Part shown: in pieces, positions 7,717 to 35,456 of the stretch
Layout of the letters: each line of letters starts with the position of its first letter
Position numbering within the stretch: position 1 is the stretch's first letter
From: Clavibacter californiensis
GTDB lineage: Bacteria > Actinomycetota > Actinomycetes > Actinomycetales > Microbacteriaceae
DNA length: 64,000 nt
NCBI RefSeq assembly: GCF_021952865.1
Contig: NZ_CP040792.1
Span: 1 to 64,000 of the forward strand
Reading direction: 5' to 3'
Position numbers and translations under genes: made by a program
Notes under the pieces: generated by a model
What the model saw: only the letters and a program-made list of their open reading frames with translations
The model's database searches: none
What the model was told of the DNA's origin: nothing

Positions 7717-7815
7717 GCGGGCAGTGTCGCGGCCGACGAGGGCCGGGGATGCCTCCGGCCGCGACTCGCCGGACGCGGGATCGGAGCCGCGCCCTGTGAG
7801 GGAGCGCCCGGACGC

Positions 7816-7850
7816 ACGAGGGGCCGGTGCGCACGGCACCGGCCCCTCGT
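7816..7850 (-). terminator. Terminator of guaB
   Basis: Perfect 15-base arms at 7816-7830 and 7836-7850 with a 5-nt loop, starting 33 nt after the guaB stop. The 16-mer CGCCCGGACGCACGAG (plus-strand reading, 7805-7820) overlaps the outer stem. The same 16-mer abuts the groES and rplQ terminators. Confidence 0.85.
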
Positions 7851-7883
7851 CGTCACCGCGCGGGATCCGCGCGGCTCACCGCA

Positions 7884-9386
7884 TCAGCGCCGGTAGTTGG
7901 GCGCCTCGACGACCATCTGCACGTCGTGCGGGTGCGACTCCTTGAGCCCGGCCGCCGTGATGCGCACGAAGCGCCCGCGGTCCTTGAGCTCGCCGACCGT
8001 GCGCGCGCCGACGTAGAACATGGACTGCCGGAGGCCGCCCGTGAGCTGGTACACGACGTTCGCGAGGGATCCGCGGTAGGGCACCTGGCCCTCGATGCCC
8101 TCGGGGATGAGCTTGTCGTCGTTCGGCACGTCCGACTGGAAGTAGCGGTCCTTCGAGTAGGAGGTCTTCGAGCCGCGCGTCTGCAGGGCGCCGAGCGATC
8201 CCATCCCGCGGTAGCTCTTGAACTGCTTGCCGCCCACGAACATGAGGTCGCCCGGGCTCTCGTCGCAGCCGGCGAGGAGGCTGCCGAGCATGACGGTGTC
8301 GGCGCCGGCGACGAGCGCCTTCGCGATGTCGCCCGAGTACTGCAGGCCGCCGTCCGCGATGACGGGGATGCCCGCCGCGCGCGCGGCGAGCGACGCCTCG
8401 TAGACCGCGGTGACCTGCGGCACGCCCACGCCCGCGACGACGCGCGTGGTGCAGATGGATCCGGGGCCGACACCCACCTTGATCGCGTCCGCGCCCGCAT
8501 CGATGAGCGCCTGCGCGCCGGAGCGCGTGGCGACGTTGCCGCCGATCACGTCGACGTGCGAGGTGGCGGGGTCGGACTTCAGGCGACGGATGATGTCGAG
8601 CACGCCCTTGCTGTCGCCGTTGGCGGTGTCGACGACGAGCACGTCCACGCCGGCCTCGACGAGCGCGAGCGCGCGCTGCCAGGCGTCGCCGAAGAAGCCG
8701 ATGGCCGCGCCGACGCGGAGGCGGCCCTCGGCGTCCTTCGTCGCGTCCGGGTACTGCTCCGACTTGTCGAAGTCCTTGACGGTGATGAGCCCGCGCAGCT
8801 TCCCCTGGTCGTCCACCAGCGGGAGCTTCTCGATCTTGTGCTCCGCGAAGATCGCGATCGCGTGGTCCGGGTCGATGCCGACCTGCCCCGTGATGAGCGG
8901 GGTGCGCGTCATGACGTCGCGCACGAGCGTGGTGGCGGCCTGCACGGGCGAGACGAAGCGCATGTCGCGGTTCGTGATGATGCCCACGAGCGTGCCGTCG
9001 GACTCGACGACCGGGAGGCCGGAGACGCGGAACTGGCCGCACAGGGCGTCCACCTCGGCGACCGTCGCGTCGGGGCGCGTGGTGACGGGGTTGGTGATCA
9101 TGCCCGACTCGCTGCGCTTGACCTTGTCGACGAAGGCGGCCTGGTCCTCGATGGAGAGGTTGCGGTGGATCACGCCGAGACCGCCCTGGCGCGCCATCGC
9201 GATGGCCATGCGCGCCTCGGTGACGGTGTCCATCGCCGAGGAGAGGAGGGGTGCGGCGACGCTGATGTTGCGGGTCAGGCGGGAGGTGGTGTCCGCCTCG
9301 CTGGGGATGACGTCGGTGTGCCCCGGCAGGAGCATGACGTCGTCGTAGGTGAGGCCGATGACGCCGAACGGGTCGGACTGGTCCAA
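7884..9386 (-). CDS. guaB: Inosine-5'-monophosphate dehydrogenase
   Basis: Oxidises IMP to XMP with NAD, the rate-limiting step towards GMP. 500 residues. The N-terminal barrel strand has GLTYDDVMLLPG. Two CBS modules occupy about residues 95-215 (SGLPVVESDGTLVGIITNRD; KLPLVDDQGKLRGLITVKD). The catalytic cysteine is in the loop GVGPGSICTTR near residue 310, and the active-site flap has YRGMGSLGA. It starts with TTG, preceded by GGAGGGAA at a suitable spacing. It is a single-gene unit with its own terminator, divergent from livH. Confidence 0.97.
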   Translation of the reverse strand: MDQSDPFGVIGLTYDDVMLLPGHTDVIPSEADTTSRLTRNISVAAPLLSSAMDTVTEARMAIAMARQGGLGVIHRNLSIEDQAAFVDKVKRSESGMITNPVTTRPDATVAEVDALCGQFRVSGLPVVESDGTLVGIITNRDMRFVSPVQAATTLVRDVMTRTPLITGQVGIDPDHAIAIFAEHKIEKLPLVDDQGKLRGLITVKDFDKSEQYPDATKDAEGRLRVGAAIGFFGDAWQRALALVEAGVDVLVVDTANGDSKGVLDIIRRLKSDPATSHVDVIGGNVATRSGAQALIDAGADAIKVGVGPGSICTTRVVAGVGVPQVTAVYEASLAARAAGIPVIADGGLQYSGDIAKALVAGADTVMLGSLLAGCDESPGDLMFVGGKQFKSYRGMGSLGALQTRGSKTSYSKDRYFQSDVPNDDKLIPEGIEGQVPYRGSLANVVYQLTGGLRQSMFYVGARTVGELKDRGRFVRITAAGLKESHPHDVQMVVEAPNYRR

Positions 9387-9623
9387 GTTCCCTCCAGGGG
9401 GATGAGAGGCGGATGAGATACCCGGGGGACCGCGTCGGCAACCGGTGTCTCAATGTTAACGGGACGGGCCGAGCGGCATTCCCGGCATATCACGCCTCCA
9501 CGCCGTACGCGCCCGAAACATCCAGGACATAATCAGCACGTACTGTCAACCAACGTCGTCCTGACGGTAGTCGCGGTGCCTGTGCGGATGTACCCGTCCC
9601 ACGGCTCCCCCTATGGAGGTCTA

Positions 9624-11084
9624 GTGATAGCCACTGGTTCGGCCGGAGCACGCGCGCAGCGCATGTGGGCCCTGATTCTCGCGGTGGCGTTCGCCTGCAC
9701 CGCACTTCTCCTCACGGCCCCATCGGCTGCCCACGCGGATCCACGCGCGGCGCCCCAGGCGGTCGACCCGGCGTCCGCCGAGCAGTCGCTGCTCGTCTGG
9801 GTCCGGGCGGACGCCGACAAGACCGGCATCGCCGGGGTCACCGTGAAGGTGTCGGGCGGCGGCGTCGAGGCCACCGGTACGACCGGCACGGACGGCAAGG
9901 CCGAGGTCGGCCTCAGCGCACCGGGTTCCTTCACGGTCGAGGTCGACGAGTCCACCATCCCCCAGGGCGCCGGCGTCCCCCGCGCGGGCTCGAGCCCCCG
10001 CGAGGTCGACGTGGCCGCGGGCAACAAGAACGTCCCCGCCTTCTTCTTCATCTCGCCCGACGGAGCCGCGGCCGGAGCCGCGGGATCGACGCCGGCACCG
10101 AGCGCGAGCGCCGGCACGGGCACCTCCTCCGGCGGCGAGACCGCAGCGCCGGACACCGAGACCGGCACGGTCTCCGGCACCGCGGAGCCCGTGACCCAGA
10201 ACAACTTCTGGAAGATCTTCTGGCCCAAGGTGGTGACGGGCCTCATCTTCGGCCTGCTTCTCGCCCTCGCGGCCATCGGCCTCTCCCTCATCTACGGGAC
10301 CACGGGCCTCAACAACTTCGCGCACGGCGAGCTGGTGACCTTCGGGGCGCTCATGGCGTACCTCTTCAGCAACGTGCTCGGCCTCAACCCGGTGCTCGCG
10401 ATCATCATCACGGTGATCCTCGGCGGGGCCTTCGGGTTCGTGCAGGACGCGGCCCTCTGGAAGCCCCTGCGGAAGCGGCGCCTCGGGCTGGTGCCGCTCA
10501 TGATCGTCACCATCGGCCTGTCGCTCGCGCTGCGCTACATCTTCCAGTTCATCTTCGGCGCCGACCGCCTCACGCTCCCGAACAGCCCGGCGCCGTTCCT
10601 GGTCGTCGGCCCGGTGAGCCTCAAGTTCACCGACGTCGCCGGCGCGATCGTCTCGATCGTGCTGCTCCTGGCGGTCGCGTACGTGCTGCTCTACACGAAG
10701 ATCGGCAAGGCCACCCGCGCCGTCTCCGACAACCGCTCGCTCGCCGCGGCGTCGGGCATCGACGTGGAGGGCGTGATCCGCGTGGTCTGGATCGGCGGCG
10801 CCGCGCTGGCCGCCCTGTCCGGCGTCTTCATCGCCTACTACCAGTCGCTGCGCTGGGACACGGGCGCGTCCATCCTGCTGCTCGTCTTCTCGGCCGTCGT
10901 CCTGGGCGGACTGGGAACGGCGTTCGGAGCGCTCATCGGCTCGATCGTGATCGGCGTCTTCATCAACGTCAGCACCATGGTCCTGCCCGAGAACATGAAG
11001 TACGTGGCCGCTCTCGTGGTCATGATCGTCATCCTGCTCGTCAGGCCCCAGGGCATCCTGGGTCGGAAAGATCGGATCGGTTAG
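9624..11084 (+). CDS. livH: Branched-chain amino acid ABC transporter permease LivH with secreted-type N-terminal domain
   Basis: 486 residues. The C-terminal 290 residues are a normal LivH permease with about eight helices (GLSLIYGTTGLNNFAHGELV near residue 210; RPQGILGRKDRIG at the end). Ahead of it are a signal-peptide-like segment (MWALILAVAFACTALLLTA then AHA), a beta-rich domain of about 90 residues like SpaA/carboxypeptidase-regulatory folds (TGIAGVTVKVSGGGVEATG), and an Ala/Ser/Thr/Gly linker. The GTG at 9624 has GGAGGT only 3 nt upstream, which is close. The ATG at 9663 is the alternative. First gene of livHMGF. Confidence 0.9.
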   Translation: MIATGSAGARAQRMWALILAVAFACTALLLTAPSAAHADPRAAPQAVDPASAEQSLLVWVRADADKTGIAGVTVKVSGGGVEATGTTGTDGKAEVGLSAPGSFTVEVDESTIPQGAGVPRAGSSPREVDVAAGNKNVPAFFFISPDGAAAGAAGSTPAPSASAGTGTSSGGETAAPDTETGTVSGTAEPVTQNNFWKIFWPKVVTGLIFGLLLALAAIGLSLIYGTTGLNNFAHGELVTFGALMAYLFSNVLGLNPVLAIIITVILGGAFGFVQDAALWKPLRKRRLGLVPLMIVTIGLSLALRYIFQFIFGADRLTLPNSPAPFLVVGPVSLKFTDVAGAIVSIVLLLAVAYVLLYTKIGKATRAVSDNRSLAAASGIDVEGVIRVVWIGGAALAALSGVFIAYYQSLRWDTGASILLLVFSAVVLGGLGTAFGALIGSIVIGVFINVSTMVLPENMKYVAALVVMIVILLVRPQGILGRKDRIG

Positions 11085-34947: not shown

Positions 34948-35019
34948 GATGCTTCCTTGCTTTCGTTCTCGCTGGCCTCGTGCCGCCGCGGATGCGGGGC
35001 CGTTCCTTGTGCAGCAGGC

Positions 35020-35241
35020 CTACTTGTAGCGGTAGACGATCCGGCCGCGGGTGAGGTCGTACGGGCTCAGCTCCACGATCACGCGGTCCTCGGGGAGGAT
35101 GCGGATGTAGTGCTGACGCATCTTGCCCGAGATGTGGGCGAGGACCTTGTGCCCGTTGCTCAGCTCAACGCGGAACATCGCGTTCGGCAGAGCTTCGACA
35201 ACTCCGCCTTCGATCTCGATGACGCCGTCTTTCTTGGCCAT
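35020..35241 (-). CDS. infA: Translation initiation factor IF-1
   Basis: 73 residues. OB-fold protein starting [20 protein letters not shown] and ending RGRIVYRYK, fully typical. First gene of infA-rpmJ-rpsM-rpsK-rpoA-rplQ. A strong promoter lies about 100 nt upstream. In most actinobacteria this gene directly follows map; here 8 kb of mannitol PTS genes separate them. Confidence 0.97.
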
Positions 35242-35345
35242 ATACTCACTGTCGCTAGAGGTGGTGTCTGCTGTTCGTGCGGATGCGCATCATGGTGAGA
35301 CGCAGATGCCGGGCACGCCGGGAGGCGGCCGAGCACCAAGGGTCG

Positions 35346-35374
35346 AGAGTACGGCATCCCCGGGCGTGTCGCAA
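35346..35374 (-). promoter_or_regulatory. Promoter of the infA-rplQ operon
   Basis: Minus-strand TTGCGA (35369-35374), exactly 17 nt, TACTCT (35346-35351). The expected start near 35339 gives a leader of about 98 nt. Confidence 0.75.
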
Positions 35375-35428
35375 TTCTCCCCGCGTGTCGCGGCCGGATC
35401 CGTGGATCCTGCGCTAGCGGACGCACGA

Positions 35429-35456
35429 CGGGCCGGACGGTCTCCCGTCCGGCCCG
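35429..35456 (-). terminator. Terminator of the mannitol PTS operon
   Basis: Perfect 12-base arms at 35429-35440 and 35445-35456 with a 4-nt loop, 26 nt after the mtlD stop. GGACGCACGA (35419-35428), part of the shared terminator motif, abuts the distal side. Confidence 0.85.

What the first reader, a model, noticed from the sequence alone, without database searches (positions are those of the whole stretch)
7805..35456. A 16-base sequence abuts three unrelated terminators, with shorter forms at two more
Reading the plus strand, CGCCCGGACGCACGAG is identical at 7805-7820 (guaB terminator), 16579-16594 (groES) and 32029-32044 (rplQ). GGACGCACGA abuts the mtlD terminator (35419-35428), and CCCGGACGC abuts the DUF4190 terminator (18334-18342). 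All five genes are on the minus strand, so in RNA order the motif (CUCGUGCGUCCGGGCG) always comes right after the stem, where a U-tract would be. Stem sequences differ, so it is not a copied terminator. It may be a GC-genome substitute for the U-tract, a pause or release signal, a processing site or a small repeat.
Basis: seen in the sequence. Interest (0 to 1): 0.72.

Follow-up and report, generated by a model that had tools for sequence, protein, structure and literature searches.

The report
Conserved GC-rich terminator tail in Clavibacter
In this GC-rich plant-associated bacterium many RNA 'stop' hairpins lack the usual run of U's and carry instead a recurring, evolutionarily preserved sequence just after the hairpin, which is probably the part that lets the RNA copying machine let go.

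Summary
The 16-mer occurs exactly three times in the 3.24-Mb genome, each time at a hairpin with a different stem. The genus is Clavibacter. The 16-mer is an extended form of a frequent but degenerate hairpin tail; in RNA sense UCGUGCGUCC(GG), with a sister form UCGUCGUCCG.

Of 106 hairpins after stop codons in 864 kb of this genome, 11 carry CGTGCGT (0.2 expected) and 12 GTCCGGG (0.3 expected). At rplQ, groES, qcrB and atpC, compared across 17-18 Clavibacter genomes, the ten tail bases are kept at 95-98% on average, while bases 13-24 drop to 50-58% (chance 45%). At guaB and tig the DNA beyond is kept too, so they do not discriminate. This points to selection on a terminator tail.

rplQ terminators of relatives show U-runs, TCGTTTC or TCGTCGTT, so the tail looks like a U-tract remade for 73% GC. 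The exact word is mainly a genus-level feature.

Pausing and release at the tail are inferred; no RNA 3' ends were mapped. Processing and Rho are less likely; a mobile repeat or chance very unlikely. Filed as a new variant of low-U intrinsic terminators.

The parts
7805..7820 (-). 16-base tail motif at the guaB terminator (RNA sense CUCGUGCGUCCGGGCG)
   Evidence: exact match; guaB by Pfam IMPDH
7816..7850 (-). guaB terminator hairpin, 15-bp perfect stem, loop 5; overlaps the motif by 5 bases
   Evidence: 33 nt after the stop
16579..16594 (-). 16-base tail motif at the groES terminator
   Evidence: exact match; groES by Pfam Cpn10
16594..16622 (-). groES terminator hairpin, 12-bp perfect stem, loop 5
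   Evidence: 46 nt after the stop
32029..32044 (-). 16-base tail motif at the rplQ terminator
   Evidence: exact match; rplQ by Pfam Ribosomal_L17
32041..32077 (-). rplQ terminator hairpin, 16-bp perfect stem, loop 5; overlaps the motif by 4 bases
   Evidence: 12 nt after the stop
35419..35428 (-). 10-base core (RNA sense UCGUGCGUCC) at the mtlD terminator
   Evidence: mtlD by Pfam Mannitol_dh
35428..35457 (-). mtlD terminator hairpin, 13-bp perfect stem, loop 4
   Evidence: 25 nt after the stop
18334..18342 (-). 9-base form (RNA sense GCGUCCGGG) at the hairpin after gene 18398-18817
   Evidence: read
18342..18381 (-). hairpin, 18 pairs counted with one mismatch allowed, between two convergent genes
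16528..16537 (-). extra copy of the 10-base core without a strong hairpin

Best explanation
These are factor-independent (or NusG-assisted) transcription terminators whose U-tract has been replaced, in a 73% GC genome, by a conserved low-U tail with the consensus UCGUGCGUCC(GG) and the sister form UCGUCGUCCG. Shown: the tail recurs after hairpins of unrelated genes, mostly on the downstream side, and at four genes it is kept across the genus while the DNA beyond it diverges. Inferred: after the GC-rich hairpin folds, RNA polymerase halts with its 3' end near UCC|GGG, about 6-9 nt past the stem base, where the hybrid behind it is locally weak and the duplex ahead is GC-rich, and the RNA is released. 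Also inferred: the letters GCG at tail positions 5-7 matter beyond hybrid strength, so the polymerase or NusG may read the tail as a pause sequence.
For: Word counts in 106 tails: CGTGCGT 11 (0.2 expected), GTCCGGG 12 (0.3), GTCCGG 17 (1.0), GTCGTC 18 (2.5); on the reverse side of the 48 tandem hairpins 0, 0, 1 and 1. 45 of 106 tails hold one of five words against 6.7% of random 20-mers. Tail positions 1-10 kept at 0.95-0.98 on average at rplQ, groES, qcrB and atpC against 0.50-0.58 at positions 13-24, chance 0.45. Pooled over 101 rows of six genes: 95, 100, 95, 85, 97, 99, 96, 91, 74 and 95%. 8 of 17 other Clavibacter loci with the 12-mer abut a hairpin against 1% of 600 random positions. A T-run terminator scan of the two stretches lists none of the five hairpins. 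RNA-DNA hybrid energy is weakest around the stem end and the base order is weaker than shuffles, z=4.0. Relatives carry U-runs or TCGTTTC/TCGTCGTT at the rplQ terminator.
Against: No RNA 3' ends are available. 61 of 106 hairpins lack the five words. At guaB and tig the DNA beyond the tail is nearly as conserved (0.79 and 0.77) as the tail (0.84 and 0.86), and guaB keeps GCGTCC in only 2 of 16 rows. Some tail words are also raised on the reverse side of tandem hairpins (GTGCGG 8 of 48, CGTGCG 5 of 48), and an EM motif search on tandem hairpins alone scores both sides alike, 70.0 and 73.3. The hybrid effect is small (-13.4 against a genome mean of -14.6; nine U's would give -1.6), and the word is only the 20th weakest of 128 C/G variants. 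No link with codon bias among terminator genes, p=0.66.
Confidence: 0.68

Rival explanations
1. RNA processing or end-protection element: the tail is a cleavage site, or pairs with the upstream flank to lengthen the stem and protect the 3' end; termination happens elsewhere.
For: Upstream and tail 12-mers of 48 tandem hairpins pair slightly better when matched than swapped (-6.63 against -5.98, p=0.019). CCGCAC is raised upstream of tandem hairpins (11 against 0.6 expected). Folds pair part of the tail with upstream bases.
Against: CGCAC upstream and GTGCG in the tail do not co-occur (4 of 106 have both; p=0.30). At tig and qcrB the upstream flank varies between species while the tail is kept (by eye).
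Confidence: 0.14
2. Rho-dependent termination: the hairpin only blocks trimming, and the tail is part of a Rho or NusG-Rho stop point.
For: PMC8269248 (passages) offers Rho as one reading of structured, U-poor 3' ends in Streptomyces; PMC12288462 (passages) calls Rho the dominant mechanism in mycobacteria.
Against: Trimming back to a hairpin would not keep a specific sequence beyond it, yet that is what is kept at four genes. Not tested directly here.
Confidence: 0.09
3. Composition only: the tail is a worn-down U-tract with spaced U's; the particular G and C letters do not matter.
For: U content of rplQ tails falls with GC across 60 loci (rho -0.29, p=0.027). The hybrid is locally weak.
Against: G5, C6 and G7 change in 3, 1 and 4 of 101 rows while C9 changes in 26 of 101; weaker C/G variants exist.
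Confidence: 0.06
4. A small dispersed repeat, uptake sequence or chromosome-orienting motif that happens to sit at terminators.
For: The 11 hairpin-linked 10-mers all run one way left of 1.29 Mb and the other way right of 1.59 Mb; in the sampled tails CGTGCGT also leans that way (9 of 11).
Against: Only 26 copies of the 10-mer, 12 in the reversed control. GTCCGG, GTCGTC and GCGTCC do not follow that polarity. Copies sit at orthologous places in other species behind unrelated stems.
Confidence: 0.03

Closest known systems
I-shaped (U-less) intrinsic terminators of mycobacteria (PMC12288462, passages)
   Same: GC-rich hairpin close after the stop codon, no U-run.
   Different: The I-shaped class is described as lacking the poly-U tail; the passages I saw name no conserved sequence after the stem. 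Here a specific tail is conserved.
Low-U terminators of Streptomyces, including HS-U-lack 3' ends (PMC12207403 and PMC8269248, passages)
   Same: Stable stems, few U's (3-4 in ten in Streptomyces; mean 2.2 in ten here).
   Different: Described by U content; where motifs were sought (PMC8269248) the passages speak of U-rich tracts. Those rest on mapped 3' ends, the present ones do not.
Canonical E. coli-type intrinsic terminator
   Same: Hairpin followed by a short functional tail; probably the same release logic.
   Different: No U-run: a T-run scan of the two stretches lists none of the five.
TRIT, the M. tuberculosis terminator model of RNIE (recalled; seen only as a mention in PMC3526491)
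   Same: A lineage-specific terminator family modelled by sequence plus structure (recalled).
   Different: Could not be compared: paper not held, model not at hand. The stems here are unrelated to each other.

Membership tests
Canonical (L-shaped) intrinsic terminator | GC-rich hairpin shortly after the stop codon | tested here: met
   five hairpins 12-46 nt after stops
Canonical (L-shaped) intrinsic terminator | U-rich tract directly after the stem | tested here: not met
   T-run scan of 7000-19000 and 31000-36500 lists none of the five; mean 2.2 U in ten over 106 hairpins
I-shaped / low-U actinobacterial terminators | strong hairpin near the stop codon without a U-run | tested here: met
I-shaped / low-U actinobacterial terminators | transcripts end there in cells or in a purified system | not testable with these tools
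   no 3'-end data at hand
TRIT (RNIE) | match to the TRIT covariance model | not testable with these tools
   paper not held; model not at hand
Rfam families | match at gathering score in the window | tested here: not met
   0 matches
Dispersed repeat or DNA uptake sequence | many copies independent of gene ends | tested here: not met
   16-mer 3 copies, all at hairpins; 10-mer 26 against 12 in the control

The most novel reading that the evidence does not exclude
High-GC actinobacterial terminators of this lineage end in a sequence-specific pause-and-release element, UGCGUCC|GG, that RNA polymerase or NusG reads letter by letter and that does the job of the U-tract. It would have evolved from a U-tract in the Clavibacter lineage, with the same word appearing at hairpins in other families of the order (L036, L038 and G035 tails).
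Probability: 0.35. Interest if true: 0.75.

Novelty: new variant of a known kind. Interest (0 to 1): 0.55.

Why it matters
[quoted passage not shown] Here evolution has varied the hairpin and kept the tail, and the tail's boundary and tolerated letters can be read off. That gives a short sequence whose effect can be tested by simple swaps, and it could help find terminators in genomes where a T-run rule lists none.

Tried and rejected
Chance: rejected. Copied terminator or mobile repeat: rejected (stems unrelated, orthologous places). Uptake or chromosome-orienting sequence: few copies; the polar layout of the exact 10-mer, and of CGTGCGT (9 of 11), is not shared by GTCCGG, GTCGTC or GCGTCC. 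Link with strongly expressed genes: suggested by the gene list but not supported by codon bias among terminator genes (21 with and 85 without the words, p=0.66). Tail-upstream pairing as the reason for conservation: weak. A class-wide element: not supported; one locus per genome was examined and the 12-mer abuts a hairpin in 1 of 29, the reversed word in 1 of 30. Known RNA family: none in the window. Literature: seven searches of an open-access library listed no paper that names this tail by title or abstract; I opened only four papers, in passages, so this is no proof of absence. An EM motif search over all 106 tails gave a TCGT core with log-likelihood 155 against 44-55 for 12 shuffles, the shuffles being run with fewer seeds and iterations; on tandem hairpins alone both sides scored alike.

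Rows left out or set by hand: rplQ 1 of 18 loci; guaB 3 of 19 loci; tig 1 of 17 loci unusable and 2 more without my anchor (L373, L375, whose tails read CGCGCGTGCGG); one genome of 18 (G002) had no tig match; pooled 101 rows. The register of each gene set and of one tig row was set by eye; three guaB rows (L105, L107, L108) have a different base or extra bases there and fit the register badly. My hairpin finder missed 7 of 27 loci and 20 of 80; these are not counted. The six genes were chosen because this genome carries the word there.
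Full report
OBSERVATION. The genome (3,243,492 bases, two contigs) holds exactly those three 16-mers and no copy of the reversed control. The 10-mer GGACGCACGA occurs 26 times against 12 for its reversal. By a strict stem score 10 of 26 abut a hairpin on the RNA-sense side; an eleventh (1969012) has a bulged stem (by eye). Besides guaB, groES, rplQ and mtlD (Pfam) these follow atpC, trigger factor and a cytochrome b gene taken as qcrB (Pfam), and a nitroreductase-like and a DUF305-like gene (by eye); for two sites (1593893, 1969012) the upstream gene was not identified. 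Part of the 16-mer is itself paired in the stem at guaB and rplQ.

ORGANISM. The genome search lists G003 as the same genus. Its rplQ locus (contig of 67,172 bases, 6692-10249) has the length and range of the record NZ_LQXA01000018.1, Clavibacter michiganensis subsp. tessellarius. The window's genus is therefore taken as Clavibacter; the species is not known.

NOT JUST A 16-MER. In the window plus 40 stretches (864 kb) I called 804 genes (89% coding) and took the best hairpin (stem score 10 or more) after each stop codon: 106 hairpins from 766 gene ends, 58 of them between convergent genes. In 20 bases from 4 before to 16 after the stem end, CGTGCGT is seen 11 times (0.2 expected), GTCCGGG 12 (0.3), GTCCGG 17 (1.0), GTCGTC 18 (2.5) and TGTCCGG 7 (0.1). 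On the reverse side of the 48 tandem hairpins these are seen 0, 0, 1, 1 and 0 times, but GTGCGG is seen 8 and CGTGCG 5 times there, so the sides are not wholly unlike. 45 of 106 tails hold one of five words, against 6.7% of 5,000 random 20-mers. An EM search over all tails finds a TCGT core (log-likelihood 155 against 44-55 for 12 shuffles run with fewer seeds and iterations); on tandem hairpins alone both sides score alike, 70.0 and 73.3, with different words. The tail is thus degenerate with two frequent spellings, TCGTGCGTCCG and TCGTCGTCCG.

SELECTION. Six genes that carry the word here were compared in Clavibacter genomes (rplQ 17 rows, groES 18, guaB 16, tig 14, qcrB 18, atpC 18; searches; tables 62, 63, 68, 78). 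Mean majority frequency at tail positions 1-10 against positions 13-24: rplQ 0.96 and 0.58, groES 0.96 and 0.55, qcrB 0.95 and 0.50, atpC 0.98 and 0.53, guaB 0.84 and 0.79, tig 0.86 and 0.77; chance is 0.45-0.46. So four genes show a clear drop just past the tail, and two do not discriminate because the DNA beyond is kept too. Pooled over 101 rows, positions 1-12 read T95 C100 G95 T85 G97 C99 G96 T91 C74 C95 G78 G74; from 13 on the information is 0.33 bit or less per position. guaB is the loosest: GCGTCC in 2 of 16 rows, GCGT in 11 of 16. Stems differ between genes and change within a gene with both arms together (L096). In groES 5 of 18 genomes go from GCGTCC straight into sequence that lies further away in others.

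TAXONOMIC REACH. In 17 other Clavibacter genomes the 12-mer TCGTGCGTCCGG occurs 5-11 times each against 0-5 for the reversal. Of one locus examined per genome, 8 of 17 abut a hairpin, against 1% of 600 random positions. Outside the genus: 2 of 10 loci from other families of the order (L036, L038), 0 of 2 from other genera of the family, and 1 of 29 loci in a class-wide search, as for the reversed control (1 of 30). In sampled stretches CGTGCGTC follows 4 of 22 hairpins in G035 and 2 of 13 in G033, and TCGTGCGTCC is seen after one hairpin of G140, another genus of the family. rplQ terminators of 80 named loci, mostly Microbacteriaceae, show U-runs in some genera and TCGTTTC, TCGTCGTT or TCGTCG in others; TCGT is in 27 of 60 scored tails and U content falls with GC (rho -0.29, p=0.027). 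The simplest history is a U-tract worn down to spaced U's and then fixed as a specific word in this lineage (inference).

MECHANISM. The hybrid energy of the 9-mer starting at each offset is weakest at -3 to 0 around the stem end (-13.4 to -13.8; genome mean -14.6, sd 2.1), and past the stem it is strongest at +6 to +8 (about -15.6); base order in the tail is weaker than shuffles, z=4.0. A weak stretch is thus followed by a strong GC block. Read against the stem, UCC|GGG lies about 6-9 nt past its base (my reading), close to the 7-9 nt that PMC12207403 quotes for in vitro termination (passages). A pyrimidine followed by G suits the elemental pause consensus (recalled). The effect is small beside a U-tract (nine U's: -1.6), and the word is only 20th weakest of 128 C/G variants, while G5, C6 and G7 change in 3, 1 and 4 of 101 rows and C9 in 26. 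That pattern favours letter-specific reading by RNA polymerase or NusG; PMC12288462 (passages) says mycobacterial NusG strongly stimulates intrinsic termination at suboptimal U tails. None of the termination steps was shown here.

AGAINST. No 3' ends; 61 of 106 hairpins lack the five words; no link with codon bias among terminator genes (p=0.66), although genes with hairpins as a group have higher codon bias than all genes; upstream-tail pairing slightly above swapped pairs (p=0.019), so an end-protecting extended stem is not excluded.

KNOWN OR NEW. Low-U terminators in high-GC Actinobacteria are known: Streptomyces has 3-4 U in ten (PMC12207403, passages), S. clavuligerus has structured U-poor 3' ends (PMC8269248, passages), mycobacteria have I-shaped terminators (PMC12288462, passages). 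A conserved letter-specific tail of this kind did not appear in the listings of seven searches. I file it as a new variant of that kind, pending an in vitro test.

Noticed in passing
window 14072-14099: Seven tandem copies of CTAG between two convergent genes, next to a hairpin at 14023-14050.
   Followed up: no
L202:14456-14581 and others: Convergent gene pairs often share one symmetric hairpin with ACGACGA...TCGTCGT flanks, which would serve both strands; 58 of 106 hairpins were in convergent settings.
   Followed up: partly
upstream of hairpins, own-genome sample: CCGCAC is raised before tandem hairpins (11 against 0.6 expected); role unknown.
   Followed up: partly
G000:C1 whole contig: The 11 hairpin-linked copies of the exact 10-mer lie on one strand left of 1.29 Mb and on the other right of 1.59 Mb; GTCCGG, GTCGTC and GCGTCC do not share this.
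   Followed up: partly
L196:5944-6027 and L196:7490: Two hairpins about 1.5 kb apart share a nearly identical stem-loop, perhaps a duplicated terminator.
   Followed up: no
L205 near 8245 (-) and L175 near 14717 (-): A hairpin GCGCCCGGG-type followed by identical sequence ending in ATG in two Clavibacter genomes, perhaps a leader or attenuator rather than a terminator.
   Followed up: no
L412, atpC 3' flank: A run of CACGT tandem repeats before the atpC hairpin in one Clavibacter genome.
   Followed up: no
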